From the NCBI GenBank assembly GCA_027604705.1, contig JADHYV010000002.1, forward strand, positions 682,001 to 746,000: a DNA stretch of 64,000 nt. The letters run 5' to 3'. The translations under genes and the position numbers were made by a program. The notes beneath the pieces are model-generated. The model was not told where the DNA came from, ran no database searches, and saw nothing but the letters and a program-made list of their open reading frames with translations. The DNA comes from Allomyces arbusculus (lineage: Eukaryota; Blastocladiomycota; Blastocladiomycetes; Blastocladiales; Blastocladiaceae). Below are positions 5,423 through 21,090 of this stretch, in pieces (positions within the stretch are counted from its first letter, which is position 1; the number at the start of each line of letters is the position of its first letter).

Positions 5423-6085
5423 ATGGGCCAGTCGTTGACCAAGTATGCCAATTCGAGCATCATATCGGACGATGCATTGCGCAACACCAACTATAAGCGC
5501 GTGCTCGTCGTTGGCGAGGACCACGTCGTTCCCTACGATCAACACCGCCGCACGCTCCAGATCCGCCAAGTTCTATCGTTCTCGGGCGGCGACCACAACG
5601 TCATCGACGCCAACACGCAGCATATCCTGTATCGATCGTCTGGTAAAGTGCTCTCGTCCAAGGAGCTCGAACTACTCGACGCGCGCACGGGCATGCCCAT
5701 TGTCGCCATGCGCTCCAAGGATCCGTTTGGAGATTACGCCAGCTTTGACATTTGCCGTCCCACCAATGAGGGCGGCGAGCTGCTCATGCGCATCAAGGTG
5801 CGCCGACACGCTGAGCACTCCACGCTCGAGGGCACATTTGTCTGCGAGTCGGCTCGCCATTTGCCGCCGCTTGTTGTCAAGGCCGGATTTGTCGACATGT
5901 TTTTCTTTTTGGGCCATCCGGCTGAGCACGGGATTCTGATTGGGCGCATGGACGCGGAGCGCCATTTGAGCGGCAGCGACACCATGTCGCTCACCGTCGT
6001 TCCGGGCGTCGATGCGTCGCTGCTCGTGTCGATCTGTGTTTTGGCTGATTTCGTGCAGCGCACCGACGATCTCACTGGGTGGTGA
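5423..6085 (+). CDS. LURP-one-related (LOR/tubby-C2-like) protein A
   Basis: 220 aa, intronless. The fold family (LURP-one-related, tubby C-terminal/phospholipid scramblase-like barrel) is suggested by the strand pattern ILYRSSGKVLSSKELELLD, the segment DMFFFLG and the closing helix VVPGVDASLLVSICVLAD, typical of LOR proteins (APGVD..L..A.CV..D). The ATG at 5423 is chosen over in-frame upstream codons because the start MGQSLTKYAN is shared with the paralogue 1.1 kb downstream. That start fits an N-myristoylation signal (Gly2, Thr6, Lys7), suggesting membrane attachment. LOR proteins have no single agreed function; scramblase-like or lipid-binding roles are inferences. The family assignment rests on pattern only. 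Confidence 0.75.
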   Translation: MGQSLTKYANSSIISDDALRNTNYKRVLVVGEDHVVPYDQHRRTLQIRQVLSFSGGDHNVIDANTQHILYRSSGKVLSSKELELLDARTGMPIVAMRSKDPFGDYASFDICRPTNEGGELLMRIKVRRHAEHSTLEGTFVCESARHLPPLVVKAGFVDMFFFLGHPAEHGILIGRMDAERHLSGSDTMSLTVVPGVDASLLVSICVLADFVQRTDDLTGW

Positions 6086-6571: not shown

Positions 6572-7228
6572 ATGGGCCAGTCGCTGACCAAGTATGCGAA
6601 CACCAACTTTATCGCTGACGACGCGCTTCGCAACACCAACTACAAGCGCGTGCTCGTTGTTGGCGAGGACCACGTTGTGCCGTACGACCAGCACCGCCGC
6701 ACGCTGCTCATCCGACAACAAGCGTCCTGGTCTGGTGGGGACCACGAAGTCGTCGACGCCAACACGCAGCAAGTTGTCTATCGCACGTCGGGCCGCGTCT
6801 TTTCGTCCAAGGAGGTGGAGCTGGTCGACGCAAACACAGGCTTGCCGATTGTCGCCGTGCGGTCCAAGGACCTGCTCATCTACTCCAACTTTGATATTTG
6901 CCGTCCGTCGAGCGAGGGAGGCGACGTGCTCGTCAAGGTCAACGTGCGCCGCCACCTCACGCACTACACGCTCGAGGGGACGTTTGTCTGCGACACGGCT
7001 CGCAATTTGCCACCGCTGATCGTCAAGGCCGGGTTTGTCGACATGTTTTTCTTTTTGGGCCGGCCCTCGGAAAACGGCGTTTTGATTGGGCGCATGGACG
7101 CGGAGCGAAACTTTACCTCGAAGGATACCATGTCGCTTGCAGTTGTACCAGGCGTCGACGCGGCCTTGCTGGTCGCCATTTGTGTCTTGGCCGATGTGGT
7201 GCGGCGAACCGACGAAGCTCGGAATTAG
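6572..7228 (+). CDS. LURP-one-related (LOR/tubby-C2-like) protein B
   Basis: 218 aa, intronless tandem paralogue of gene A. The two share the start MGQSLTKYAN, the block LRNTNYKRVLVVGEDHVVPY, FVDMFFFLG, LIGRMDAER and the closing VVPGVDA.LLV.ICVLADVV. Divergence concentrates in the loops (ASWSGGDHEV versus LSFSGGDHNV) and the last residues. The N-myristoylation-type start is conserved, so membrane targeting is probably functional in both copies. The conserved DNA extends little beyond the coding region, which points to a duplication that is not very recent. Confidence 0.75.
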   Translation: MGQSLTKYANTNFIADDALRNTNYKRVLVVGEDHVVPYDQHRRTLLIRQQASWSGGDHEVVDANTQQVVYRTSGRVFSSKEVELVDANTGLPIVAVRSKDLLIYSNFDICRPSSEGGDVLVKVNVRRHLTHYTLEGTFVCDTARNLPPLIVKAGFVDMFFFLGRPSENGVLIGRMDAERNFTSKDTMSLAVVPGVDAALLVAICVLADVVRRTDEARN

Positions 7229-7354: not shown

Positions 7355-7903
7355 TCACAGTTTCGATTGCTTCCCCTGCTTTGTGACTCCCTGGTCGCAC
7401 TCACCTTCCGAGCCGTCCTCGTTCTCTTCGTCCTGGGCCTCCTCCTCCTCGCCGGAAGCCTGACCGCTATCTTGCTTCTTGGTCGTCGCTCCCATCGTCT
7501 TGCCGGTCGGGGCAGAAGCCGCGGCTGCAACTGAGACCGATCCGACTTTCATGGTCACATCAGCGGCAGCGGCCACGGCAGACGCGGCCGACGAAGCGGC
7601 ATTCGCGACAGCCGATGCGGGACCGGCCAGAGCGGCACCAATTGCAGCGCCCGCAGCAGCGGTCGCCGCGGCGGCGGTCCCGGACATGGCGAGTGTGCCC
7701 GTTGCGCCAATCGCTTGCATGGTCGCGACCGCCCCACCGGCCACCGTCGTGCCACCGCCCAGGCTCATGAGCCATGCCGCCGTGGAGCCCGCAGCAATGC
7801 CGCCAGCACCGAAACCAAAGGCAGCCACGGCGGCGGGCACTGCGATCGCTGCAACCACGGGCGCGCTAATCGCCCCATAGACTGCGCCGCGGTACGAGGA
7901 CAT
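7355..7903 (-). CDS. ISG12/IFI6-like Gly/Ala-rich membrane protein 1
   Basis: 182 aa, intronless, ATG at 7903-7901. The core reads GFGAGGIAAGSTAAWLMS, then GGAVATMQAIGATG, which matches the signature of the interferon-induced 6-16/ISG12 family (GF...GIAAGS.AA..MS / GSLVATLQS.GA.G). Animal members are small hydrophobic proteins of mitochondrial or other internal membranes that influence cell death. The core is followed by an Ala-rich hydrophobic stretch (about 80-125) and a strongly acidic C-terminal tail with an EEEEAQDEENEDG run. It is the first of a same-strand array (7.3-14.3 kb). Function in fungi is unknown; only the family is inferred. Confidence 0.75.
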   Translation of the reverse strand: MSSYRGAVYGAISAPVVAAIAVPAAVAAFGFGAGGIAAGSTAAWLMSLGGGTTVAGGAVATMQAIGATGTLAMSGTAAAATAAAGAAIGAALAGPASAVANAASSAASAVAAAADVTMKVGSVSVAAAASAPTGKTMGATTKKQDSGQASGEEEEAQDEENEDGSEGECDQGVTKQGKQSKL

Positions 7904-8588
7904 TGTTCAATGGAGTGGATTATGTCGTCTTGCGCCCGGTTCGTCGTTCGTTCGTTGGGCAGCCCTGGTCGCTTGGAGCAAAACCAAATACGAACAAATC
8001 AGTTGCAGTCAGCCGTGAATCCACAGTCGATGATTCTCACCTGTTGGTATCGTCAGTGAGGATGTTCCCGAGAGCGTGCGCTTTGCTTTGGGCAGACGTG
8101 CGACTTGTTCAGTCCACAATGAGGCGGAGTCTGTCCAAATGCTGTCCGCCGAGTCGCCACTTGCTTCAACGACGCAGGGTTTGCCTCATCAAGTATTCGC
8201 GAGCATCGGCGTTCGCAAGCATTGGTGGTTGCCCTGGCAGCCTGTTGTCTGTCACGTTGCTCACGATTGCCAGTAGGTGTCTCTGTATGCGGGACGGCTG
8301 GCCCTCTCTCCATATTCTTCTCGCCGGCTATTCATTTCTAGTCGTGGAAAGAGCCATGGACACTTCCTAGTCCACCCCGCTGCGTCGTCCATACGGCCCC
8401 CGTTGACCCCACGGATTTGATTCTAGCCGCCTTTTTTGTGACTCCTCCGCTCCTTGAGGCTAACAGAGCCTGCTTCTTTCAGAGCAAGACTTCAAGAGTG
8501 CATTTGTCAAAAATATTTATCAGTGTTTAGAAAAGGAGACTTTGATGCTGCCACCGTGGTGTGACGAAGCAACTGCCGCAAATTTCAT
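7904..8588. other. Intergenic, no supported gene
   Basis: 685 nt between ISG12-like genes 1 and 2. A plus-strand ORF from 7903 has no ATG-anchored homology and overlaps the divergent promoter side of gene 1, so nothing coding is supported. Confidence 0.45.
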
Positions 8589-9140
8589 TCATGGCTCGCA
8601 GAGCATGACATAGTCGTCAATTACCTTGTCCCCGCCCTGAGCGTTGGACTCGGGACCGTCTTCGTCGTCATCCATACTCTGCTCATCGTGACGCTTTTTC
8701 AGCAGCATCACGGCCGTTGCGCCTGAGGCAACACCGCCAGCCGCCGCCAGTGCGACGGCGCTTGCGCAAAAGATTGATGCCGCCCCGCCAACCGGCGTGG
8801 CAGTTGCAACACCTGCAATTCCGGCTCCAACACTCACGCTCCCGACGGCAGTTGCAATGCTTGTAATTGAGGCTCCGACGGTTGCGCTCAATGCGGCGGT
8901 CGCAGCCGTCGCAGCAGTCGCGGCACTTGACATGGTGGCACCCGTCGTGGCAATCGACTGCAAGACTCCACCGATCCCACCACCACCGATACTCGACATG
9001 AAACCCACGGCCGCCGAACCCGCGACGATCCCGCCGGTGCCAAAAACAAGAGCTGCAGCCACGCTTGGGTTGGCCACCACAGCGAGAACAGGTGTGCTGA
9101 CCGCGCCAGCGAGTGCCTGACCAATAAGCATGGCCTGCAT
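8589..9140 (-). CDS. ISG12/IFI6-like Gly/Ala-rich membrane protein 2
   Basis: 183 aa, intronless. The ATG at 9140-9138 (MQAMLIGQALAGAVSTP) is chosen because ISG12-like protein 3 begins in the same way (MALFIGALAGAVSTP); the frame is open further upstream without similarity. The core reads VFGTGGIVAGSAAVGFMSS, then GGVLQSIATTGA, a diverged ISG12 signature. A second hydrophobic Ala/Gly stretch follows, then a charged tail (KKRHDEQSMDDDEDG). The array pattern of hydrophobic core plus acidic tail is kept. Function unknown. Confidence 0.7.
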   Translation of the reverse strand: MQAMLIGQALAGAVSTPVLAVVANPSVAAALVFGTGGIVAGSAAVGFMSSIGGGGIGGVLQSIATTGATMSSAATAATAATAALSATVGASITSIATAVGSVSVGAGIAGVATATPVGGAASIFCASAVALAAAGGVASGATAVMLLKKRHDEQSMDDDEDGPESNAQGGDKVIDDYVMLCEP

Positions 9141-10214
9141 AATGACGATTGCTGGAGCGTTCGTGTCGTGGCGCAGTCGTAGACTTGTGCGTGCTGATTG
9201 CCGTCGGCCTTGGCGTAAAGTCGAATGAGAGAAGAGGTGAATTGCTTCTAAGTAGATCGCGTAAACAGTGCAGTATTGACAGTTAGCTTGAAGCGTGAAT
9301 GAAATGGCCGTGTCGCTTGCGTGTTTGGCCATTGTCGACCATGTGGGAATGCAAAACACGTGCCCCGCCCAGCAAAAGTCTCGGACGTTTGACCACTGAT
9401 TATAGGAAGTTCCTCTATTTTGCACGCACCCGCTTGCCTAAGCCGCCACAGGGCAACTGAATGATTCAAAGCGTATCAAGGGACTATGTTCATAGGTACC
9501 TGTCAAGTCCAGCACATGCATTTTATGTCGAGAGCACCACCGGCGAGTTGCACTTCACGCAGTGTGCTATGAGATGGCAAAGTCCTCAGCTGATATTTGC
9601 GGAGCAAGACGAGCTTCTGTCGGAGCGGGCCGCTCGAAACATATCGGCCGACGTGCCGTTGCCGCCAGTATAACGAACATGCGTGTTTGGTCGTTTTAAT
9701 TTCGGCGCTGGTGGTGGGTGGAGTCGGATGGAACAATGAATCTGAGTTGAAACTCCACCCGCTTGTACGTTCGCCAGGTGCAGATAGTGGTGGGACTGAG
9801 GAGCATTCAGCATTCGATGTGAAGCAAGAGGAGATGCAGTTCATGATATTTAGTGTTCATTTACTCTGAAAGCATGGTAAAAATGCTGGCGCAAGCTTCC
9901 GCGGACTCGGGAGCATTGGTCAGAAATGTTGCATTCACCCTCGCAACCGCACACAATGCACACACTAGTGGGAGCAAAGACATTGTGTATGAAGCATTTC
10001 CATGATCCCTATATCGCCAAACCCCAAAGCTTTACCTTCCGCACCAGACAACGTTGCGTTCAATGCCTATTCTCTGCAAAACAACGGAGGTGCTGAAGGT
10101 TCCAAGAGCAGAATTCCAAAACAAATATCCATTTCTCTGGCGAAACAACCACACCACTGCGTGTCCTTGACGGCATTCTTTCGCTCCCATTTCCACACCA
10201 CCCGCGTTGCACAA
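9141..10214. other. Long intergenic stretch
   Basis: About 1.07 kb between ISG12-like genes 2 and 3, with lower GC than its neighbours around 9.8-10.1 kb. It must hold the promoter of gene 2 and the 3' region of gene 3. I see no gene, RNA or repeat that I can support. Confidence 0.4.
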
Positions 10215-10748
10215 TCACGATTCGCCAGTGGGATCCTGGTCATCTGCGTCGTCCTTGACCTTGTTCTCGCCTTCCTCGCCCTCTTTTTCGACATCCTCGT
10301 CCTTGTTCTCCCCATCCTCCTCCTCGCCATTCCCCTTCTTTAGCACCGTCGCGATCGTCGCACCCGCAGCCGCACTGGCCGCAGCAATCCCCGCCGCCGT
10401 GCTCGTAGTAATGGTCGTAACCGTTGCGGCCGTCGCAGCGACGGCCGTACCAGCCGTCGCGACGCCCGTGATCGCGGCTCCAATCGCAGCACCCGCAGTC
10501 ACCGTCGCGGCCGCGGCGGCCCCGGACATGGACAATGCGCCCGTCGCGCCAATCGCTTGCATCGTTGCAACAATTCCGCCGGCCGCGGTCGCGCCGCCTC
10601 CCAGGCTCGACATGAGACCAGCAGCCGTTGAACCCGCAACAATTCCGCCTGCGCCGAAGCCGATGGCGGCAACAGCAGCGGGGATAGCGAACGTCGCGAG
10701 AATCGGCGTGCTAACCGCGCCAGCGAGTGCGCCGATAAAAAGGGCCAT
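10215..10748 (-). CDS. ISG12/IFI6-like Gly/Ala-rich membrane protein 3
   Basis: 177 aa, intronless, ATG 10748-10746. N-terminal hydrophobic segment (MALFIGALAGAVSTPILA), then the best ISG12 signature of the array: GFGAGGIVAGSTAAGLMSS and GGIVATMQAIGATGALSMSG. An Ala/Thr-rich hydrophobic stretch follows, and the last 45 residues are highly acidic with Lys (GNGEEEDGENKDEDVEKEG). Closest in layout to proteins 1 and 2. Likely an internal-membrane protein with a soluble charged tail; the role is unknown. Confidence 0.75.
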   Translation of the reverse strand: MALFIGALAGAVSTPILATFAIPAAVAAIGFGAGGIVAGSTAAGLMSSLGGGATAAGGIVATMQAIGATGALSMSGAAAAATVTAGAAIGAAITGVATAGTAVAATAATVTTITTSTAAGIAAASAAAGATIATVLKKGNGEEEDGENKDEDVEKEGEEGENKVKDDADDQDPTGES

Positions 10749-11139
10749 GGTGATGGTGCAATGGGGATCGCGTCAGGTCTTGTAGTCGTTCGTCGCGCGC
10801 TTGAGTGTGTTGGTTGCAGTGAACTTGACAGGGGGTGCAGTGGGTGGGGGGTCGAGGCTGGGAGAGAGAGATTAGGTGCCGCCTAGAGGAAGGACGCGCC
10901 GCAGGTTTTTATCGAGGAACAATCCCAAAGACGGTTGACGGGCTAATCTTGGACAAATGTTGGACGTCGGCAACGTTCGCTCCCATTCACCTCGAATTCA
11001 ATCTGGTGAGCCCTTTTGTTGTATTTTCCGCGATTCTGGCGGATCTCTGATTACTGCCCAACTTTGACTGCTCCATGCGAAAATTGGGTGGATCCCAGCG
11101 TTCTCGTCAAAAACAATTTATGGACATCCGCCTTCAGCA
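10749..11139. other. Intergenic, promoter side of ISG12-like gene 3
   Basis: 391 nt upstream of gene 3 and downstream of the decayed copy at 11.14 kb. No gene or repeat was identified. Confidence 0.4.
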
Positions 11140-11260
11140 CTCCACCCGGTCACGCCCTGCCTCGACTGCTGCATCAAGCGCCAGCACTCCCTTTCGCCGC
11201 CGCACTCGCGACCGAAGCGCCCACCACAGCCCACGCAGCCGCGATGACGAAACGTTGGCA
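11140..11260 (-). pseudogene. Decayed C-terminal fragment of an ISG12-like gene
   Basis: The minus strand encodes IAAAWAVVGASVASAAAKGS, which nearly matches the C-terminal part of ISG12-like protein 5 (IAAAGAVVGASVASAAAKAS). DNA similarity continues past the fragment's early TGA into the paralogue's stop region (CTCYACCCGGYCACGCCCTGCC). Only the gene's last 120 nt or so remain, just downstream of the gene at 11263. It is a host gene relic: a truncated tandem copy, with the start, core signature and N-terminal repeats missing. Confidence 0.75.
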
Positions 11261-11262
11261 GC

Positions 11263-11856
11263 CTACTCTTCCTCGTCCTCGTCATCCATAATGAGCACCA
11301 CGCCCTTCTGCGCCATTGCGAGAGTAAACTCATCCACCGAAATCATCACTGCTATGGGAGCCAACTCTGGCACGCCCTTGGCCGGAGACTTGGACACCGA
11401 GTCCTGCAGGTGCAAAATGCGCGCCGAGTCGTGCGCCGGCGTGTTCTCGATGCAGCCGCCCATAGAGCTGTGCATTGACATGAGCACAGCGTCGTTGGCT
11501 GGAGGCTGGACCAACGATTCCTTGGGCATGGGCATGGACGCCTGTTCGGCTTGCACCGGCGTGGCGACCCTGTCGTCGTCGGTAGTGCTGTCGTCCATTG
11601 ACTCGCGCCTCGTGCTCTGGTTGTTGATTGCAGCGGCCAGGATAGCCCCAATCCCAAGAGCTCCTGCGGATGCTGCTCCCACTGCTCCCACGACCGCAAC
11701 CGCAGCTTCCAAAGCGACAACAGCCGCGGCGCTGGTAGTGCCAACAGCCGCAGTACTTCCGAGCATCGCGGTAACTGCCGACCCGACAATCGCCCATGGC
11801 GCAGCAGCTGACGCCCCGAAAAGAGGCACGGCGAGAGGCGCGAGAAGAAAAGCCAT
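11263..11856 (-). CDS. Ala-rich hydrophobic protein with acidic tail, ISG12-array member by context
   Basis: 197 aa, intronless, ATG 11856-11854. The first 85 residues are Ala/Val/Gly-rich and membrane-like (TSAAAVVALEAAVAVVG; ALGIGAILAAAIN), but the ISG12 signature (GIAAGS / VATMQ.IGATG) is absent. The remaining part is soluble, with runs such as MDDSTTDDD and a C-terminal MDDEDEEE. Position, strand, lack of introns and the acidic tail tie it to the array, and its stop lies 3 nt from a decayed ISG12-like C-terminus. It may be a strongly diverged member or an unrelated Ala-rich protein. Its 5' flank carries a 44-bp tandem duplication. Confidence 0.55.
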   Translation of the reverse strand: MAFLLAPLAVPLFGASAAAPWAIVGSAVTAMLGSTAAVGTTSAAAVVALEAAVAVVGAVGAASAGALGIGAILAAAINNQSTRRESMDDSTTDDDRVATPVQAEQASMPMPKESLVQPPANDAVLMSMHSSMGGCIENTPAHDSARILHLQDSVSKSPAKGVPELAPIAVMISVDEFTLAMAQKGVVLIMDDEDEEE

Positions 11857-11890
11857 GTCGAGGTGGTTTGACTTGGCAATCGCGAAGGGA

Positions 11891-11980
11891 GTGGTGGATT
11901 GAGTGGTTGCAGGTGTTGGTTGAGCTTGGTGACGGCGTGGTGGATTGAGTCGTTGCAGATGATTGTTGAGCTTGGTGACG
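11891..11980. repeat. 44-bp tandem duplication (two copies)
   Basis: Two imperfect copies (11891-11934 and 11937-11980) starting GTGGTGGATTGAG and ending GAGCTTGGTGACG, separated by 2 nt. They lie 35-125 nt upstream of the start codon at 11856, in the promoter or 5' UTR of the Ala-rich gene. Confidence 0.85.
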
Positions 11981-12255
11981 AAGAAAACTAGACGCGGTTA
12001 CGGCGGCATTTCTCCACGCCCAAGAGTCGGCCAGGTCGGCCTCCTTGTCGCGAGCGTCGCGCCGGGCGAAGGAGAGGGTGAGAGGTAGTGCACGTGGGCC
12101 TACGGTTGCTTCCAGCAGGCATGTCGGCCATTTCTTGGACAGCAATCGGTTCAACTTTAGATTTTGCTTGCTGTATGAGAAAGACGAGCGTTCCCTCCAC
12201 GCATGCGACATCGCTCAAATCATTATAATCATGATCAATTCGTGGCCCTCGTCCC
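11981..12255. other. Intergenic within the ISG12-like array
   Basis: Upstream flank of the 11856 gene and 3' flank of ISG12-like gene 5. No supported feature. Confidence 0.4.
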
Positions 12256-13083
12256 TCAACTCTCTACCCGGCCACGCCCTGCCGCGGCCGCTGCGTTAAT
12301 CGCCAGAACGCTAGCTTTCGCCGCCGCGCTCGCGACCGACGCACCCACCACAGCCCCCGCCGCCGCGATCGCGGGCGACAAAGCCACGGCACCCGTCGCG
12401 CCAATTGCCTGCATCGTCGCAACGAGCGACCCGGCCTGTGTTAAGGCGCCGCCCATGGTGCTCATCATCCCGGCCGCGATCGAGTGCGCGGCAATCCCCT
12501 TGGCAGTAAACCCGAGCGCGCCAGCGACCGCTGGCGCGACCGCGCTAATCACCAAGGGCACAACGACGGCACCGACGACAGCCGCAGTGGCGATCGCGCA
12601 GATCCCGGACGTCGATTTACGCGAGATCGCAGGCGTTTGCGCCGCAATGTCGCCATAGTAGTGGTGATGGTGATGGTGCACGGCCGGGTCGTACATGTAC
12701 TCCCTGTAGTCGCGCATGTCGCGCGCTTCGTGCGTGTGACACTTGGTCGCAGGGTCGGCAGTGGATTCCTTGCCCTTGCGCGTGGCCGCAGTGACATGCG
12801 AAATGGCCGAATTGACGACATGCGTCGCGTCGTCAGCGACTTCAGCAATCCATGCGCTCTCGGCCACATACGTCGACTCGGAATCTTGCGCGACGTGCTG
12901 CTTGGTATCAGTGGCGGCCACCTTGGGGACCCAATCGTCCAGCGCGGCCGTGCACTGGTCGGCTTCCTGCACGTCATGCGCGAATGGCTCGCGCGCCGAG
13001 TGGAGGAAGTCTGTCTTGGCGACAAACGCAGCGCGTGCGAGCGGTTCGCCGGTCGGGGCCTGGAACAGGTTCAATTCGTTCAT
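12256..13083 (-). CDS. ISG12/IFI6-like protein 5 with long N-terminal region
   Basis: 275 aa, intronless. The ATG at 13083-13081 (MNELNLFQAP) is preferred over one 12 codons earlier because the sequence just upstream of it (TTTTGC[A/G]GCAGGT, read on the plus strand) is shared with gene 6 at the equivalent place. Residues 1-165 form a soluble region with degenerate helical repeats (VADDATHVVNSAISH, YMYDPAVHHHHHHYYG). The ISG12 core follows: ALGFTAKGIAAHSIAAGMMS and GSLVATMQAIGATGAVALS, then an Ala-rich helix ending GRGRVES. There is no acidic tail, unlike proteins 1-3. The native six-His run HHHHHH is notable. Confidence 0.75.
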   Translation of the reverse strand: MNELNLFQAPTGEPLARAAFVAKTDFLHSAREPFAHDVQEADQCTAALDDWVPKVAATDTKQHVAQDSESTYVAESAWIAEVADDATHVVNSAISHVTAATRKGKESTADPATKCHTHEARDMRDYREYMYDPAVHHHHHHYYGDIAAQTPAISRKSTSGICAIATAAVVGAVVVPLVISAVAPAVAGALGFTAKGIAAHSIAAGMMSTMGGALTQAGSLVATMQAIGATGAVALSPAIAAAGAVVGASVASAAAKASVLAINAAAAAGRGRVES

Positions 13084-13396
13084 TTTGCGGCAGGTCAAGG
13101 AGTTGGGAGCGTCAGGCAAGATGAGTGAGGGTCAAAATCGCTGGCACCGGAGAGGCAAGAGAACGGTCAAGGTCCTTGCAGGGGAAGCAGGCTGTGTTGA
13201 TTGGCTGGCGTGTCCGTGACGGACACCATGCGGACGTCGCACGGACACCGTGGACCGAGTGGATACGACCGCGATTTTCTCGAAATGTCACCGTTTGCTA
13301 CCAGAAACACAAAGACGATTTGATTACTGTGCGCAAGTCAACCGAACATGCGCTATGTTGCCCACCTCATCACGACACACAGCTGTCACTTCATCT
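13084..13396. other. Intergenic between ISG12-like genes 5 and 6
   Basis: 313 nt holding the promoter of gene 5 and the 3' flank of gene 6. No further feature was seen. Confidence 0.4.
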
Positions 13397-14272
13397 TCAA
13401 CTCTCCACCCGATCTTTCTCTGTCGTGGCCGCCGCCGCGTCACTTGACATCATGCTCCTCTTCGCCGCGACACTTCCAACCGTTGCGCCCACGACAGCCG
13501 CCGCAGCCGCGATCGCTGGTGGCAGCACCACAGACCCCGTTGCGCCAATCGACTGCATCGTCGCGACGAGCGACCCAGCCTTGGTCGCCGCGCCGCCCAT
13601 GGAACTCATCATCCCAGCCGCGGCCGAGCCCGCGGCGATTCCCTCGGCCTGAAACCCGAGCGCGCCAGCGACAGTCGGAGCAACCGCGCCGACGATGAGG
13701 GGCGCCACGACGGCTCCCGCGACAGCCGCACCGGCAATCGCATATGGCCGAGTGGCCGGGTCTTGGAAGACAACGGCTGTCTGCGCGGCGGCGTTGCCGA
13801 GATGGTGCGCGGCCGGGTCGTAGATGTAGCCCTTGGGGTCCTGCGCGACGCGCGCGAGGTGCTCGGCCGCAGGATCAACGACATAGACCTTGGCGTCGTT
13901 GGCGGCCTTGCTGAGGTGCGGCATGGCCGGGTCAATGACGTGCGCCTTGGTATGTTCAGCGACCTTGGCGACCCACGCGCTCGCGGCCGCATACGTCTTG
14001 GGATCCTGTACGACGCGGGCAAAGTGCTCGCCCGCCGGGTCGAGCACGTTCTGCTTGGTATCGGCAGCCACCTTGGTGACCCACTCGCCCGCGGTCGCAT
14101 ACGTGCTGGGATCCTGCACGGCGCGCGCAAACTGCTCACTTGCTGGGTCGAGAACGTGCTGCTTGGTGTCGCTCGCCACCTTGGTGATCCATTCGCCTGC
14201 GGCTGCGGGATCTTGCACGGCGCGCGCGATATGCTCGCCGGCCGAGGCCCAAAATGAACTCCATCCGCTCAT
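13397..14272 (-). CDS. ISG12/IFI6-like protein 6 with N-terminal tandem repeats
   Basis: 291 aa, intronless, ATG 14272-14270. Residues 8-165 hold about six amphipathic repeats of 22-36 residues built on (E)HxARxVQDPxxY, with units such as ADTKQNVLDPAGEHFARVV, AHVIDPAMPHLSKAA and GYIYDPAAHHLGNAA. The ISG12 core follows (ALGFQAEGIAAGSAAAGMMS, GSLVATMQSIGATGSVVL) and the C-terminus ends KDRVES. The repeats resemble the apolipoprotein/perilipin style of amphipathic helix and could bind a membrane surface or lipid; that is inference. Protein 5 is the nearest paralogue, with its repeats largely decayed. Together they form a second subfamily in the array. Confidence 0.75.
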   Translation of the reverse strand: MSGWSSFWASAGEHIARAVQDPAAAGEWITKVASDTKQHVLDPASEQFARAVQDPSTYATAGEWVTKVAADTKQNVLDPAGEHFARVVQDPKTYAAASAWVAKVAEHTKAHVIDPAMPHLSKAANDAKVYVVDPAAEHLARVAQDPKGYIYDPAAHHLGNAAAQTAVVFQDPATRPYAIAGAAVAGAVVAPLIVGAVAPTVAGALGFQAEGIAAGSAAAGMMSSMGGAATKAGSLVATMQSIGATGSVVLPPAIAAAAAVVGATVGSVAAKRSMMSSDAAAATTEKDRVES

Positions 14273-14748: not shown

Positions 14749-15093
14749 ATGTCTGCCGATCACTCTACGATGACGACGCGGACGACGACCCCACCGCCGC
14801 CCGTGATCAGCGAAAAGGCCATTTCGTACCCAAACGTCGCATCGCAAACGGTCATCGACATGCCACCGCCCAACTACGGCACGGTGGGCCCCGCACCGGC
14901 TGCCGACAATGTTTCTGATTCGAGCAGCGACCGCAGCAGCCGTCGCCGCGACGGGTGCTGTATGTGCTGCTGCAAGTGCTTAATTGCCATCACGCTCTGC
15001 GACCTGTTTTGTAATTTCTGGGGGTGCCTTGCCGCGGCGCTCGTGTGTTGCTGTGCCGAGTCGGACGATGACGATAACGCGGCAACCGAGTGA
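14749..15093 (+). CDS. Small protein with Cys-rich C-terminal membrane segment (CYSTM-like)
   Basis: 114 aa, ATG at 14749. The N-terminal 70 residues are polar and Pro/Ser/Thr-rich (TTRTTTPPPPVISEK, DSSSDRSSRRRDG). Then comes a dense cysteine cluster, CCMCCCKC, a hydrophobic helix (LIAITLCDLFCNFWGCLAAALV) and CCC before an acidic end. Layout resembles CYSTM-type tail-anchored stress proteins, which are short with a Cys-rich membrane segment at the C-terminus and often palmitoylated. The exact CYSTM consensus is not matched, so this is a resemblance only. Confidence 0.6.
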   Translation: MSADHSTMTTRTTTPPPPVISEKAISYPNVASQTVIDMPPPNYGTVGPAPAADNVSDSSSDRSSRRRDGCCMCCCKCLIAITLCDLFCNFWGCLAAALVCCCAESDDDDNAATE

Positions 15094-15439: not shown

Positions 15440-17155
15440 CTACACTGGCTCCACAAGCACCTCGAGCCCCGGCTTCATTTTCACCAGCGTCTCGCGCACT
15501 GCCTCGTCCATCCTCGTCCACCGCACATCCAGCCTTTTGAGCCTCGTCCGGTTGAGCACGGGCTCGAGCGCGTCGACGGCACCCGCATCCAACATCGCGT
15601 GCCCCGCCAAATCCAGTGTGCGCAAGTCCGGTACCGCCGTTGCGAGTGCATCGAGTACGGCGCGGCACGCATCGTAGGCGTGCAGGACCGAGCACCGCAT
15701 CGCAACACTTTCCAGTTCCCGTAAACCGCACAGCAGTGGCACCGTGTCGCGCGCAAATGCTTGCACTTCGGCGTCGGCGTGGTGCGGCGCGTACCCGAAT
15801 GCGAGTTCAAGCGTGTGTAAATAGGGGCATTTGTGCACGAGCGCAGCGACGAGCGCGTGGATCGACGCGAACGAGCCGGGGCACGGAGTCATGTGCAGGC
15901 GGAACACACGCAGGGATGGCGAGAGGGACGCGATGATGGCGGGCACGGTCAGGCGCAGGTCCATGGTTGCGAGGAAAAGTGACGCGAGCGCAGTGGCGTG
16001 TTGCGGGAGGGTGGGGAGGATGGGGGACAGGAGCGTCGCGGCCACGCACCCAAGGTCGAGCTCAAAGTGATGCAGAGTCGCGGGCCATGCGGCTGGGGTC
16101 ACGCGTGTAAGCTCGGCGAAGCCGTTGTGCGGGACGGGATTGTGTGGAGCTTGGTGCGGCGCGGGGTGCGAGACCGGGTTGGGCGCAAGGGATGGGACCG
16201 GGTGCGCATGGGCCGGCACAGGGCGCGGCAGCGAGTCCATATCGAGCCCGCGGAGCGTGAGCGACGACAGAGTGCCGTGTCTGGGCAGACCGCGTGTTAA
16301 AAAGAGATGCGTTGTTTGGAGCAAAGTGGGAACTGATTCTTCGCCCTGGACCGGATCCATGGGGTCCGTGAGGCAGTTGAGCGCGTCGTCGTCAAAATCA
16401 AAGTGCAGGTGCCGCACCCACGAAGCAGAGAGAAGCCGCGCCAATCGTCCCGTGAACGCCATAGCCTCGACGCGATCGACGCGGAGTAAAGCTTTGACGC
16501 ATTCGAGATGGACGGTCAAATCAGCGACAATGGGCGGGAATCCGCCAATGGATTCAATCGCATCGAGCATGGTGTGTGCGGAGTGCGCGTCGGTCAGGGT
16601 CAAAAAGACATGTCGCGCATGAGCGAGAACGGATTCGGCCAGCCCAATCGTATTGTTGTCGAGATGTAGTGACGACAGTTGATGGTGCGGAAGGGGTCCC
16701 AGGAGCCGCACGCGATCAGCGACAAATCCTGCATGTGCCTCGCCACGAGTTGAGCAGCACGACCCAATTGGGGTGGAGAGAGCCGCATGGACAATGAGAT
16801 ACACCCTCGGCAGGCCGTGATGCGTTTCTAAAGGGCGATACGCGAGGCGGCCAATGGTCTGCGGCGCGTCGTTGCAAAGCAGGTCGAGCCAGTCGGGCAC
16901 GCATTTGGTGGGACAGTGTTGGGCCGGCAAGACGAGCGCCGCCGCGCCGGAGCAAGGGAGCGGGACCCACGGCGCGCCCGCGGTGCGTATTGTCGTGATC
17001 ATGGCTGGAGCATAAAGGATGGGCGACGCGCGCGCGAGCACAATGAGCGATGGTCGATGCATGCGCACGAGACAGTGCAGGACCAGGTCGCGCGGCACTG
17101 CAGGCAGGGCCTCGAGGCGCGAATGGCCCACGACCAAGCGCGCTGAGCAGCGCAT
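15440..17155 (-). CDS. F-box/leucine-rich repeat-like protein
   Basis: 571 aa, intronless. The ATG at 17155-17153 (MRCSARLVVGHSRLEALP) is chosen because the N-terminal block LEALPAVPRDLVLHCLVRM looks like an F-box helix pair; the frame stays open upstream into the divergent promoter without sense. The rest is a run of leucine-rich, ribonuclease-inhibitor-like units (LSSLHLDNNTIGLAESVLA, LHTLELAFGYA, LRTLDLAGHAML, LKRLDVRWTRMD). It probably serves as a substrate receptor of an SCF-type ubiquitin ligase, inferred from architecture. A decayed paralogue lies at 58.1-58.9 kb. The 236-nt gap to the AAA+ gene start makes a divergent pair. Confidence 0.65.
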   Translation of the reverse strand: MRCSARLVVGHSRLEALPAVPRDLVLHCLVRMHRPSLIVLARASPILYAPAMITTIRTAGAPWVPLPCSGAAALVLPAQHCPTKCVPDWLDLLCNDAPQTIGRLAYRPLETHHGLPRVYLIVHAALSTPIGSCCSTRGEAHAGFVADRVRLLGPLPHHQLSSLHLDNNTIGLAESVLAHARHVFLTLTDAHSAHTMLDAIESIGGFPPIVADLTVHLECVKALLRVDRVEAMAFTGRLARLLSASWVRHLHFDFDDDALNCLTDPMDPVQGEESVPTLLQTTHLFLTRGLPRHGTLSSLTLRGLDMDSLPRPVPAHAHPVPSLAPNPVSHPAPHQAPHNPVPHNGFAELTRVTPAAWPATLHHFELDLGCVAATLLSPILPTLPQHATALASLFLATMDLRLTVPAIIASLSPSLRVFRLHMTPCPGSFASIHALVAALVHKCPYLHTLELAFGYAPHHADAEVQAFARDTVPLLCGLRELESVAMRCSVLHAYDACRAVLDALATAVPDLRTLDLAGHAMLDAGAVDALEPVLNRTRLKRLDVRWTRMDEAVRETLVKMKPGLEVLVEPV

Positions 17156-17391
17156 GGTCGAGTGGTCGGTATTTAGGTACGCTGGTGTATTTGCGGCGAG
17201 TGCAACATTGCACAACGCAGCACATGGACGCGAATTGCATTGGGCCTTTGTGAGGTGGTCGCCAAGTGTTTCTGACGTGGATGGCTCGACGACTTGAAGA
17301 ACGCGCCCACACACGTTACTTCGCCCGCAGCGGAGCCCTCGTCCTCACCACCAAGCACAATCGACCATCGCTGCCCAAACTCCACATCACC

Positions 17392-19522
17392 ATGATTGGC
17401 GACCCCGTTTATAATCCGATCGCGTCGGCCGTGCACGCCAAGGCCACGAAGATCCTGAAAGAGCTCAACAAGGACCTTGTCGACCGCGACGAGTGTCTGC
17501 GCGTGCTCATGTTGGGCCTGCTCACGGGCCAAAACGTGCTGATTCTCGGCCCACCGGGCACCGCCAAGTCCAAGGCCGTCAACGACCTGTTTGAACGTGT
17601 TCACGCGACCAGCTACAAGAATTTGCTGCATGCGTCCATGTCCACCGAGACGCTTGTCGGGCCCGTCGACCTGAGCGTGCTGAAGAAGGAATCGCAGATC
17701 ATGGTCAACACCAAGGGCATGTTACCGACCGCTGAACTCGTCTTTCTCGACGAAATCTTCAAGGCCAACCGCAACGTGCTCTCGATTCTGCTCGGTCTGC
17801 TCAATGAGCGCGTCTTTGCCAATGGACCCAACAATGACCCGGTCCCGCTGCATTTTACGGCTGCCGCGTCGAATGAAACATTTCTCGACCCGGGCCAGTC
17901 GCCATTGCTCGACCGGTTCCCGCTGCGCGTCCATGTCGGCGGGCTCCCATGCGGCAAGCTTCGCGATGCGCTCACCGAGCAGGAACGCAAGTCGCGGCCG
18001 CATAAACGGTACCGCGCGGCTGTCGCCGAGGCCAAGGCCTCCGCTGCGGCTGCTGGTGGGGACCAGTCGACGCGTGCGTCAGACAAGAGCGACCAGACGC
18101 GGCTCGATCTCGACACCGACATTTACGCGCTGTTCGACGCGCTGGACGAAATGCGGATCACGTCGCTCCCGAATGACGTGCGCACGACGTTCATGACGCT
18201 CGTCGACTATGCCAATTCGCTCAATTCGGCCGGCGAGGCAAAACCGCAGCCCGACACAATTCAGACGCGGTCGCAGGAAGTGTACTGCGGCGACGTGGTC
18301 ACGAACCGCGGGATCGTCATGTTCTCGGACATGTTGCGGGTCACGGCCTTTCTGCACGGTCGTGGCACCAAGCCGTGCGTGCTTGATCTCTGGCCGCTGT
18401 GCTACATGTCATGGCGCACCAAGAAGCAGCGCGACGCCGTTACCAAGCATGTGCTCGCCGAAATATGCCACGCGTTGCCGCCACTCATCAAGACCCTCAA
18501 AGAGGCTAGGTGGATGGTCAATGTGATTCGCGACCACCTGTTTCTTCCTGACGCGATCAAGTGCGCCCTCTACTCGGCGATTCTCGCCGATCTTGTCCGC
18601 GCCGGCGCTGTGGACGAGGTCGTCGACCTGCTCAAGGACGCGCGCGTGGATCCGTCATGCAACGACGGGAAGGTGCTGCAGGCCGCCATGGACGGCAAAC
18701 ACCGCACGCTCCTGACCATACTTCGGCACGACGACCGCATCGACACGAGCGAGCTCGAACGCAAAGAGGAGGAGGAGGAGCGACAGCGCGCGGAAGCTGA
18801 GGAGGTCAAGACGCGTGGGTTGTCGGGGTCATCATCATCGAATCGGCCGGGATCTGCTGCTGAACGAGGTACGTTGAGAGTCCCTGAACGTTCTCGTTAT
18901 GGTGAAGGCTTCGATTTTGACAGACTGTCATTGACATCGACGCTCTTTACCTATTAGCTGTCGTCGAGCTCTCGGCGGCGAAAGCGTTCCGCGGCGACCA
19001 CGTTGGCGAACCAACCTGGATCCGGGCCTTGAACGACAGCACGAGTTCCAAGGGCCAAGTCCTGCGCGTCCGGGTGTATTGGCTCAACGTGCGTTTGTTC
19101 TTTTCCCCTCTTTCCCCATCTCCATCGTTGCAAGTATGCAAATCGACTGGACTTGTTATTTCCCCGTCCCTTAGATCTCCACCACCGACTTTCAGCTCGC
19201 CAACGGCCAGTGGGACTTCTTCTTGCGGCTCAAGGTCGGTGACTGCGCGCTCCCCAAGATCAATTTCGAGGTCAATATCCGAATGGCGGCGATTGGCGCC
19301 GACAGCCAGCTCGTGTGGACATCGCGCACGCTTGCGCGCGCCGAAAATGTGCAGCTGGTCCCAACGGGCGGTCTCTTCGTCAAGTGGAAGTTCCCGCAGG
19401 GACCCGTCGACGTTCAGTCGAGCAAGGGCCTGAGCAAAGTGTCGCTGCGCATGTTCACCACGTCGAGCAGCGACCTCATCGACAAGCTGTTCTTGGATAC
19501 GGTCGAGGCGCACCCAGTATGA
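17392..19522 (+). CDS. RavA/MoxR-like AAA+ ATPase with a unique C-terminal domain
   Basis: 651 aa from three exons: 17392-18868, 18958-19088 and 19175-19522 (introns of 89 and 86 nt, GTACGT..ATTAG and GTGCGT..CTTAG). AAA+ features: Walker A GPPGTAKSK (about residue 52), Walker B LVFLDEIFK, the loop LLGLLNERVFANG, sensor-1 region AAASNE and arginine-finger region SPLLDRFPLR. This pattern is MoxR/RavA-class, chaperone-like ATPases common in bacteria. After the lid region come a helical segment (LVRAGAVDEVVDLLKDARVD, ankyrin-like in feel), a charged coil (ERKEEEEERQRAEAEE), and a beta-rich C-terminal domain of about 150 residues (LRVRVYWLNISTTDFQLANG; LRLKVGDCALPKINFEV). The last domain vaguely recalls phloem-protein-2-like lectin folds. 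Substrate unknown. Confidence 0.8.
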
Positions 19523-21090
19523 ACGAGGGAAATACTTTAGTCCATTTTCTCATTATGGCTGACAGTCACGACTTTTGGTCACCGCTTTCAGGTTCCTCGC
19601 CCTTGGTTGCACCATCAGATCGTGCTGCGGAGTTTCCTGTCCTTTGCTTTTGTGCGCAACCAAGCAGAGGCTCTTCACGATTGTCGACAAACCTCGCCTC
19701 TTCTGACACCACTCCTCTTCTCAAGGCCGTTCTCAAAAAAGTTTGGTTAAAGTTCAGCAGACACCACAGACCAGGTTTTCATCCTGAACTCACGGTCACA
19801 AATCATGTCTCATAGCAGAGTATCGACTCCGCTGACACGGTTGGCGCTGTCGTCGATGACGTCGTCTTTCCACACGACCGCGCTGCTCCTGCTGGTGTAA
19901 AAGTGATGGCGATCCCGCTACCAAGGCGCCGACAAGATAGCCATTGAAATTAGCAGACGAGCTGCCAGCAACGAAATCACACTTTAGTGCAGCGTTTCGT
20001 TAGCGGCTTGAAGAAAGCGTGTTCGGACCAAATCTGGACTCTGTATTGATTATCATTCCACTCTGCCAATGCCCTCGGCAACGAACACAACGTTGTTAAT
20101 CCAAATCGTTCACGGACACATCAGGGCTGCCACTCGCGTGCCCGTTGACAGCACCCGAAGTCGCCTTGTACCGGCCGCGACGACGCCACTCCACAGGCGC
20201 GCGCTGTCGCTTTCGCACTCACATGCACCTCCTCTTCACCACATCGTCTGACCATCACCATACGCATCATTCCCGTCCCCACCCTTGCAAGCGCTCATGC
20301 CACTGCGGCACTTGCGCCAGACGGACCCGGCCCACACCTGCGGCGGCCACTTGGTCGCCGCAGCGCCGCCCACGTCCCCACCAGCACTGCTGATCGCGAG
20401 CGTCGGGCCGAGTGCAAACGCGACGTGGCCCGTAGCAACCGCGTCCTGGAGCACGGCAACCACCGAGCGGCTTCGTGCGCGAGAGCCGAGACGCGGTCCA
20501 TGGTTGATTGTTGAGCGGTTGGTCGTGAATTGGGAGTCGCTTGCAGCTGGCTGGCTGACCAGGTGAGAGTGGTCAGAAACACGTCTGTTAGCTGCCAGAG
20601 GGGTGCAGGTGCCGTAGCGTTCGCTGCAGGCGTGGAAAATTGATCGTCAAGAGGGGAGACGTATGAGCGGGGCCAGAGTATCGACAAAAGGTCATGATGG
20701 ATAGAGAGAAGATGCGATCCACAAGTAGTCAAATCGCGGTCGGTTTGCATCTCGTGGCCGTCAAGGGGCCATGGCGGACCTCGCCTTGCTGTTGGATTGC
20801 TGGTTCCGTGCGCTTCGCGTTGTCCACGGCCTGTCCGCCCGGTTTGGGCTTACGGCATCGTGGGCCGCTCACGTTGACGACGAGTTGCAAGATATGGAGT
20901 TGCTATTGCTCAACGGATGCCAGTGGATGCTCATGCTTGTTACTTTGTGGTTCCAACGTTGCCCATCATGAGGATTGAAATTTTTGCCAAGCATCACCAT
21001 CCATCACCAGCGGTCCACAACTTGCTGCAAACCAAGCTTCACGCCAACTTAATCCTGCTCTCGTCCCCCGTTTGCCGTCCGAGACTTGCC
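19523..21090. other. Gene-poor interval with relic sequence
   Basis: About 1.57 kb between the AAA+ gene and the acidic protein gene. It contains one ISG12-like relic (listed separately) and a short coding-like plus-strand stretch near 19.82-19.93 kb (SIDSADTVGAVVDDVVFPHD) without start or continuation. A 66-codon plus-strand ORF at 20771-20971 has no recognisable relatives. Confidence 0.4.
20240..20470 (-). pseudogene. Probable diverged ISG12-like fragment
   Basis: The minus strand reads VVAVLQDAVATGHVAFALGP followed by TLAISSAGGDVGGAAATK. It lines up with the second half of the array's ISG12 core (LVATMQAIGATGAVALSPAI then AAAGAVVGASVASAAAK). The first half (GIAAGS..MS) and any start codon in frame are missing, so it is probably a decayed dispersed copy, 6 kb from the array. 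The similarity is Ala/Gly-rich and could be overread. Confidence 0.45.

What the first reader, a model, noticed from the sequence alone, without database searches (positions are those of the whole stretch)
7355..14272. Array of ISG12/IFI6-like genes in a flagellated fungus
Six same-strand intronless genes in 7 kb encode Ala/Gly-rich hydrophobic proteins. Five carry the ISG12 signature (GIAAGS..MS and VATMQ.IGATG). They form two architectures: core plus acidic tail (genes 1-3), and N-terminal amphipathic repeats plus core (genes 5 and 6). In animals this family is interferon-induced and tied to mitochondrial membranes and cell death. A local expansion with new domain combinations in a fungus suggests a lineage-specific innate, stress or membrane-remodelling system; that role is inference.
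Basis: partly seen in the sequence, partly recalled or inferred. Interest (0 to 1): 0.85.

Follow-up and report, generated by a model that had tools for sequence, protein, structure and literature searches.

The report
ISG12/IFI6-family gene cluster in Allomyces
A water fungus carries a small cluster of genes for membrane proteins of the same family as the human interferon-induced IFI6 and IFI27 proteins; the family is already known to be widespread, so the cluster is real but mostly ordinary, apart from an unusual repeated front part on two of the genes.

Summary
The cluster is real. Six minus-strand ORFs lie at 7355-14272. Genes 1, 3, 5 and 6 pass the Pfam Ifi-6-16 cut-off. Gene 2 falls below it but is clearly homologous by a 2000-shuffle control. 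Gene 4 is not shown to belong. The genome is almost certainly Allomyces arbusculus. Nine such cores were found in it: five here, two on contig C50, two on C189.

The family is not new to fungi. A profile search found 435 proteins; those listed come from sponges, vertebrates, insects, nematodes, an ichthyosporean, Mortierella relatives, Glomeromycotina and others. The array is two subfamilies (genes 1-3; genes 5-6). Gene 5 groups with A. javanicus and A. macrogynus proteins, so this is not a fresh burst.

The novel part is the N-terminus of gene 6, with a 108-bp (36-residue) repeat of amphipathic helices, matched only by Allomyces proteins among 123 homologues. A related N-terminus is fused to a P-loop NTPase-like domain on contig C6.

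Most likely these are internal-membrane proteins whose hydrophobic core inserts in the bilayer, with the gene 6 helices on its surface. An immune role is unsupported inference.

The parts
7355..7903 (-). Gene 1: ISG12 core plus acidic C-terminal tail (182 aa)
   Evidence: Pfam PF06140 44.5 bits; 69.1 bits, best of 2000 shuffles -10.2
8589..9140 (-). Gene 2: diverged ISG12 core plus acidic tail; start could be this ATG or a later one
   Evidence: Pfam 21.4 bits, below cut-off; 30.2 bits, best of 2000 shuffles -7.6; closest to gene 3 in the genome, E 1e-18. Codon usage does not support it
10215..10748 (-). Gene 3: ISG12 core plus acidic tail (177 aa)
   Evidence: Pfam 45.2 bits; 64.0 bits, best of 2000 shuffles -7.2
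11263..11856 (-). ORF 4: hydrophobic Ala-rich ORF, membership not shown
   Evidence: No Pfam match; 2.2 bits, 14 of 2000 shuffles as high; negative codon score
12256..13083 (-). Gene 5: decayed N-terminal repeats plus ISG12 core (275 aa)
   Evidence: Pfam 49.1 bits; groups with A. javanicus and A. macrogynus proteins, 98/80
13397..14272 (-). Gene 6: N-terminal amphipathic repeats plus ISG12 core (291 aa)
   Evidence: Pfam 42.9 bits; 77.2 bits, best of 2000 shuffles -1.1
13926..14203 (-). 108-bp (36-residue) tandem repeat coding about residues 24-116 of gene 6
   Evidence: Tandem Repeats Finder, 2.6 copies, 80% matches; residues
11114..11245 (-). Relic similar to the 3' end of gene 5, just beyond ORF 4
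   Evidence: 79.9% identical over 134 columns to 12236-12369
5423..6085 (+). LURP-one-related (LOR) gene, neighbour of the array
   Evidence: PF04525 30.4 bits, cut-off 24.5
6572..7228 (+). LURP-one-related (LOR) gene, tail to tail with gene 1
   Evidence: PF04525 32.4 bits

Best explanation
Genes 1, 2, 3, 5 and 6 are members of the ISG12/IFI6 (Ifi-6-16, FAM14) family of small hydrophobic proteins. They form a cluster of two older subfamilies that grew by duplication and decay (shown by sequence). The Ala/Gly-rich core, predicted as hydrophobic helices around the conserved GF..GI.AGS.AA.MMS and QSIGA.G stretches, most likely inserts in an internal membrane such as the mitochondrion or ER. In gene 6 the proline-punctuated amphipathic helices would lie on the face of that membrane. 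In genes 1-3 an acidic tail takes their place and stays soluble. The proteins would change membrane permeability or shape according to their dose, as a stress or developmental response. Shown: family membership, the two architectures, fewer amino-acid-changing than silent differences between cores. Inferred: membrane insertion, location, and any role in stress, death or defence.
For: Pfam and shuffle controls. dN below dS between cores: genes 1/3 0.194 and 0.80, genes 5/6 0.207 and 0.73, genes 2/3 0.318 and 1.51. Self-similarity and a gene 5-like relic. Two-subfamily tree. Hydrophobic stretches in the cores and amphipathic stretches in the gene 6 N-terminus, moments up to 0.54 with no control run. 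Gene 6 alone matches human IFI27L1 (2loq) at E 0.0018. Passages in PMC10175689 put human IFI27 at the mitochondrial membrane with a part in permeability.
Against: Models are low confidence (mean pLDDT 65.1 and 62.0) and gave no structural match. No localisation or expression data. Codon usage is negative for gene 2, nearly neutral for gene 1 and matched by an antisense frame in gene 3. Human members have conflicting reported activities (passages of PMC5850085).
Confidence: 0.5

Rival explanations
1. A fungal innate-defence or regulated-cell-death system: the core is a membrane-permeabilising effector induced or released on infection.
For: Roles of animal relatives in antiviral response and cell death (passages). 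The only two LURP-one-related genes found in the genome lie directly beside the array; plant LOR genes are linked to defence (abstracts in the listing).
Against: No induction data, no sensor or adaptor recognised beside the array (annotated some of the neighbours), no shared upstream word in five or more genes. Neighbourhood alone is weak evidence in a eukaryote.
Confidence: 0.2
2. A lipid-surface coat or organelle-shaping set without any immune role: the amphipathic repeats of gene 6 bind lipid droplets or organelle surfaces and the core anchors them.
For: Proline-punctuated amphipathic helices, a plan like that of apolipoproteins (recalled). Faster change in the gene 5/6 N-termini, dN 0.38 against 0.207 in the cores.
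Against: Explains genes 5 and 6 but not genes 1-3; no family match for the repeat above cut-off.
Confidence: 0.25
3. Compositional artefact: low-complexity Ala/Gly-rich frames in GC-rich DNA that merely look like the family.
For: Long antisense ORFs run opposite several genes. ORF 4 behaves this way.
Against: 0 of 2000 shuffles approach any of the other five genes. dN below dS between paralogues. Relatives of gene 5 in two other Allomyces species.
Confidence: 0.03

Closest known systems
Ifi-6-16 / FAM14 family (PF06140): human IFI6, IFI27 (ISG12a), IFI27L1, IFI27L2
   Same: The whole 84-position domain is matched in genes 1, 3, 5, 6. Gene 6 alone matches IFI27L1 structure 2loq at E 0.0018.
   Different: Added acidic tails (genes 1-3) or N-terminal repeats (genes 5, 6). 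Induction by interferon cannot apply as such to a fungus.
A. javanicus GGF32_007330 and A. macrogynus AMAG_01507
   Same: Probable orthologues of gene 5, core and N-terminus.
   Different: The A. macrogynus protein is shorter at the N-terminus (192 aa). Synteny could not be checked.
Other fungal Ifi-6-16 proteins (Mortierella relatives, Gigaspora, Acaulospora, Racocetra)
   Same: Same core family; several have their own long N-terminal parts.
   Different: None of the 123 fetched homologues outside Allomyces matches the gene 6 N-terminus at E <= 1.
P-loop NTPase-like gene on contig C6 of the same genome
   Same: Shares the gene 6 type of N-terminus: score 137, shuffle maximum 72 in 2000.
   Different: No Ifi-6-16 core; carries a P-loop domain instead.

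Membership tests
Ifi-6-16 (PF06140) | Pfam domain above curated cut-off | tested here: met
   4 of 6 ORFs (genes 1, 3, 5, 6); gene 2 below cut-off at 21.4 bits; ORF 4 no match
Ifi-6-16 (PF06140) | Score above composition background | tested here: met
   5 of 6 ORFs exceed all 2000 of their shuffles; ORF 4 does not, 14 of 2000 as high
Ifi-6-16 (PF06140) | Conserved GF...GI.AGS.AA.MMS and Q[SA][IV]GA.G stretches | tested here: met
   Alignments; gene 2 has lost part of the second
Ifi-6-16 (PF06140) | Fold like the solved human IFI27L1 (2loq) | tested here: inconclusive
   Sequence match E 0.0018; models too weak for fold comparison
Ifi-6-16 (PF06140) | Mitochondrial or ER membrane location | not testable with these tools
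   Needs tagged proteins
Ifi-6-16 (PF06140) | Induction by interferon or infection | not testable with these tools
   No expression data; not a sequence-defining feature of the family
GTPase (MMR_HSR1, AIG1/GIMAP type) for the C6 gene that shares the N-terminus | Pfam GTPase domain above cut-off | tested here: not met
   Best is MMR_HSR1 16.6 bits, cut-off 21.9; no AIG1 match at E <= 1. In the 60 of 211 PDB profile matches shown, the best stretch mostly covers the P-loop alone

The most novel reading that the evidence does not exclude
The gene 6 N-terminal repeat is a lineage-specific membrane-surface module that Allomyces attaches to different effectors: an ISG12 core in genes 5 and 6, and a P-loop NTPase-like domain on contig C6 that belongs to an expanded family there. 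Together these would be a modular membrane-acting response system in a zoosporic fungus, with the ISG12 core as one of its effectors, built independently of interferon.
Probability: 0.12. Interest if true: 0.65.

Novelty: new member of a known kind. Interest (0 to 1): 0.33.

Why it matters
It adds a well-supported multi-copy case of the ISG12/IFI6 family in an early-diverging flagellated fungus, in line with the family being older than interferon. A water mould with a clustered set of these genes could help ask what the core does to membranes outside interferon responses. The shared N-terminal repeat is a testable lead to partner proteins.

Tried and rejected
Artefact of composition: rejected for five genes by shuffles (also six shuffles of genes 1-3 against Pfam, no Ifi-6-16 match). 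Gene 4 as a sixth member: not supported, though its pairwise scores against the other genes are mildly raised (against gene 3, 1 of 500 shuffles as high; against gene 6, 7 of 500), and its open frame scores 11.7 bits in a six-frame scan, near an unrelated frame at 12.7.

Viral or prokaryotic source: none of 133 and 69 pattern matches in viral and prokaryote contigs was confirmed (pattern pre-screens, so not exhaustive). A shared upstream motif: none convincing. Structural match: none. The match of profile A4 to 2loq at E 5.8e-20 is partly circular because A4 holds animal IFI27 rows; the single-sequence match of gene 6 is not. ISG12 signal in the C6 protein: none (-4.3 bits). NCBIfam: no match for any of the six.

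Papers: seven searches on the family listed, in titles and abstract starts, no paper on its role in fungi; I saw only capped lists. One table row in PMC10051545 names an Ifi-6-16 domain in a fungal protein (passage). Two more searches were on LOR genes and on Allomyces arbusculus. Parker and Porter 2004, cited as naming the gene family (reference line), is not held and was not read. What I say of human IFI6/IFI27 rests on passages; of PMC9144789 and PMC10161657 I saw passages only.
Full report
What is there. The window is bases 682001-746000 of contig C2 in a 25.9 Mb, 197-contig genome. Two database proteins of Allomyces arbusculus (GGF31_002766, GGF31_002770) lie on a contig of 12,261 bases, the length of contig C189 here, and both are found letter for letter on C189. 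IFT122 lies in the window. The genome is therefore almost certainly Allomyces arbusculus, a flagellated fungus.

The six ORFs. All are on the minus strand at 7355-14272. Pfam Ifi-6-16 (cut-off 29.1 bits) scores genes 1, 3, 5, 6 at 44.5, 45.2, 49.1, 42.9 bits, gene 2 at 21.4, and ORF 4 not at all. With a profile from the 119 fetched homologues not named as Allomyces, genes 1, 2, 3, 5, 6 score 69.1, 30.2, 64.0, 69.1, 77.2 bits, against best-of-2000 shuffles of -10.2, -7.6, -7.2, 0.5, -1.1. ORF 4 scores 2.2, with 14 of 2000 shuffles as high. Six shuffles of genes 1-3 gave no Ifi-6-16 match in Pfam. In a six-frame scan of the window and five other loci, ORF 4's open frame scored 11.7 bits, about as high as an unrelated frame at 20239-20646 (12.7 bits).

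Are they genes? Between paralogue cores dN is well below dS: genes 1/3 0.194 and 0.80, genes 5/6 0.207 and 0.73, genes 2/3 0.318 and 1.51. The gene 5/6 N-termini change faster, 0.38 and 0.74 (Nei-Gojobori, nearing saturation for the older pairs). Codon usage, trained on four long ORFs of the window, gives modest support to genes 5 and 6 (27.4 and 21.5 bits), little to genes 1 and 3 (2.9 and 8.2, with an antisense frame as good for gene 3), and is negative for gene 2 and ORF 4 (-15.0 and -8.9). So coding rests on homology and selection more than on codon bias.

History. Self-comparison shows genes 1/3 at 73% and genes 5/6 at 74% DNA identity over about 310-345 bases, and a relic at 11114-11245 that is 80% identical to the 3' end of gene 5. 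A tree of 40 cores (ORF 4 left out) puts genes 1-3 together (92/92), and genes 5, 6, both C189 genes and the A. javanicus and A. macrogynus proteins together (98/95), with gene 5 next to the latter two (98/80). How these groups join each other is unresolved. Only 103 columns were used, so deep branches are unsure. Nine such cores were found in the genome: five here, two on C50, two on C189. These searches score only the best candidates, so nine is a lower bound.

How common is this? An alignment search found 435 proteins at E <= 0.001, of which the best 120 are listed. The named ones include sponges, a coral, molluscs, insects, nematodes, vertebrates, a sea urchin, an ichthyosporean, Mortierella relatives and Glomeromycotina. 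Only 7990 candidates were scored, so this too is a lower bound. Contig lengths recur in that list (274,641 four times; 472,127 and 1,136,121 three times each), which suggests several copies per contig elsewhere (inference from lengths). No relative was confirmed in viral or prokaryote contigs. Acidic tails occur in 8 of 110 homologues checked; 13 of the 123 fetched were dropped because the core motif was not found by the script.

The repeat. Residues 24-116 of gene 6 are coded by a 108-bp tandem repeat of short amphipathic helices broken at DP, with moments up to 0.54 and no control run. Among 123 fetched homologues three, all from Allomyces, match the gene 6 N-terminus at E <= 1. A genome search with that N-terminus gave five matches at E <= 1: gene 6 itself, gene 5 (1.9e-12), an ORF on contig C6 (7.7e-10), a C189 gene (0.17) and a chance-level one on C10 (0.53). 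The C6 ORF has a P-loop NTPase-like C-terminal part (GPAQAGKS) and no Ifi-6-16 core. The gene 6 and C6 N-termini align at score 137 against a shuffle maximum of 72 in 2000; gene 5 against C6 is much weaker, 2 of 2000 shuffles as high. The P-loop part has nine relatives at E <= 1e-5, seven of them on C6. None of those nine came up in the search with the N-terminus. It has no Pfam match over cut-off.

Structure. AlphaFold models of genes 6 and 3 are low confidence (mean pLDDT 65.1 and 62.0) and gave no useful structural match. The gene 6 model has three long helices and a short one in the core. Gene 6 alone matches human IFI27L1 (2loq) at E 0.0018.

Mechanism. Best reading: dose-acting internal-membrane proteins with a hydrophobic core, plus a surface-lying helical repeat or an acidic tail. 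I put membership at about 0.95 for genes 1, 3, 5, 6 and 0.9 for gene 2, membrane insertion at about 0.8, and any stress or defence role at about 0.3. Only membership is shown.

Verdict. A sound observation with one gene too many, in a family already present in many fungi and animals. The name 'interferon-induced' should not be carried over as function. The shared N-terminal repeat is the one lead worth following.

Noticed in passing
G000 contig C6: 379753-380853 (L019, L036): ORF with a gene 6-like repeat N-terminus fused to a P-loop NTPase-like domain; nine relatives of the P-loop part at E <= 1e-5, seven of them on the same contig.
   Followed up: partly
Window 5423-6085 and 6572-7228, + strand: The only two LURP-one-related (PF04525) genes found in the genome sit side by side, next to the array. 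Related by fold to phospholipid scramblases (recalled).
   Followed up: partly
G000 contig C189 (L010, L052, L011): A 12,261-base contig with an ISG12-core gene towards each end and, between them, ORFs matching GDP-mannose dehydratase, EsV-1-7 cysteine-rich repeats, a nuclease of the SNase type and an Mrr-type endonuclease. The mix recalls a giant-virus-derived insertion (recalled, not tested).
   Followed up: partly
G000 contig C50: about 16604-17780 (L005, L009): Two further ISG12-core genes side by side, one with an Ala/Thr-rich N-terminus.
   Followed up: partly
P0072 and P0101: Homologues that join an Ifi-6-16 core to a SUMO-like domain (PF11976): the core recurs with different partners (one search confirms it for P0072).
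   Followed up: no
Window 14749-15093, + strand: Small Cys-rich ORF beside gene 6 with a weak CYSTM match (14.0 bits, cut-off 25.2).
   Followed up: no
Window 17266-18957, + strand: MoxR-type AAA ATPase ORF (PF20030, E 1.8e-43), a family of MoxR-vWA systems, in a fungal genome.
   Followed up: no
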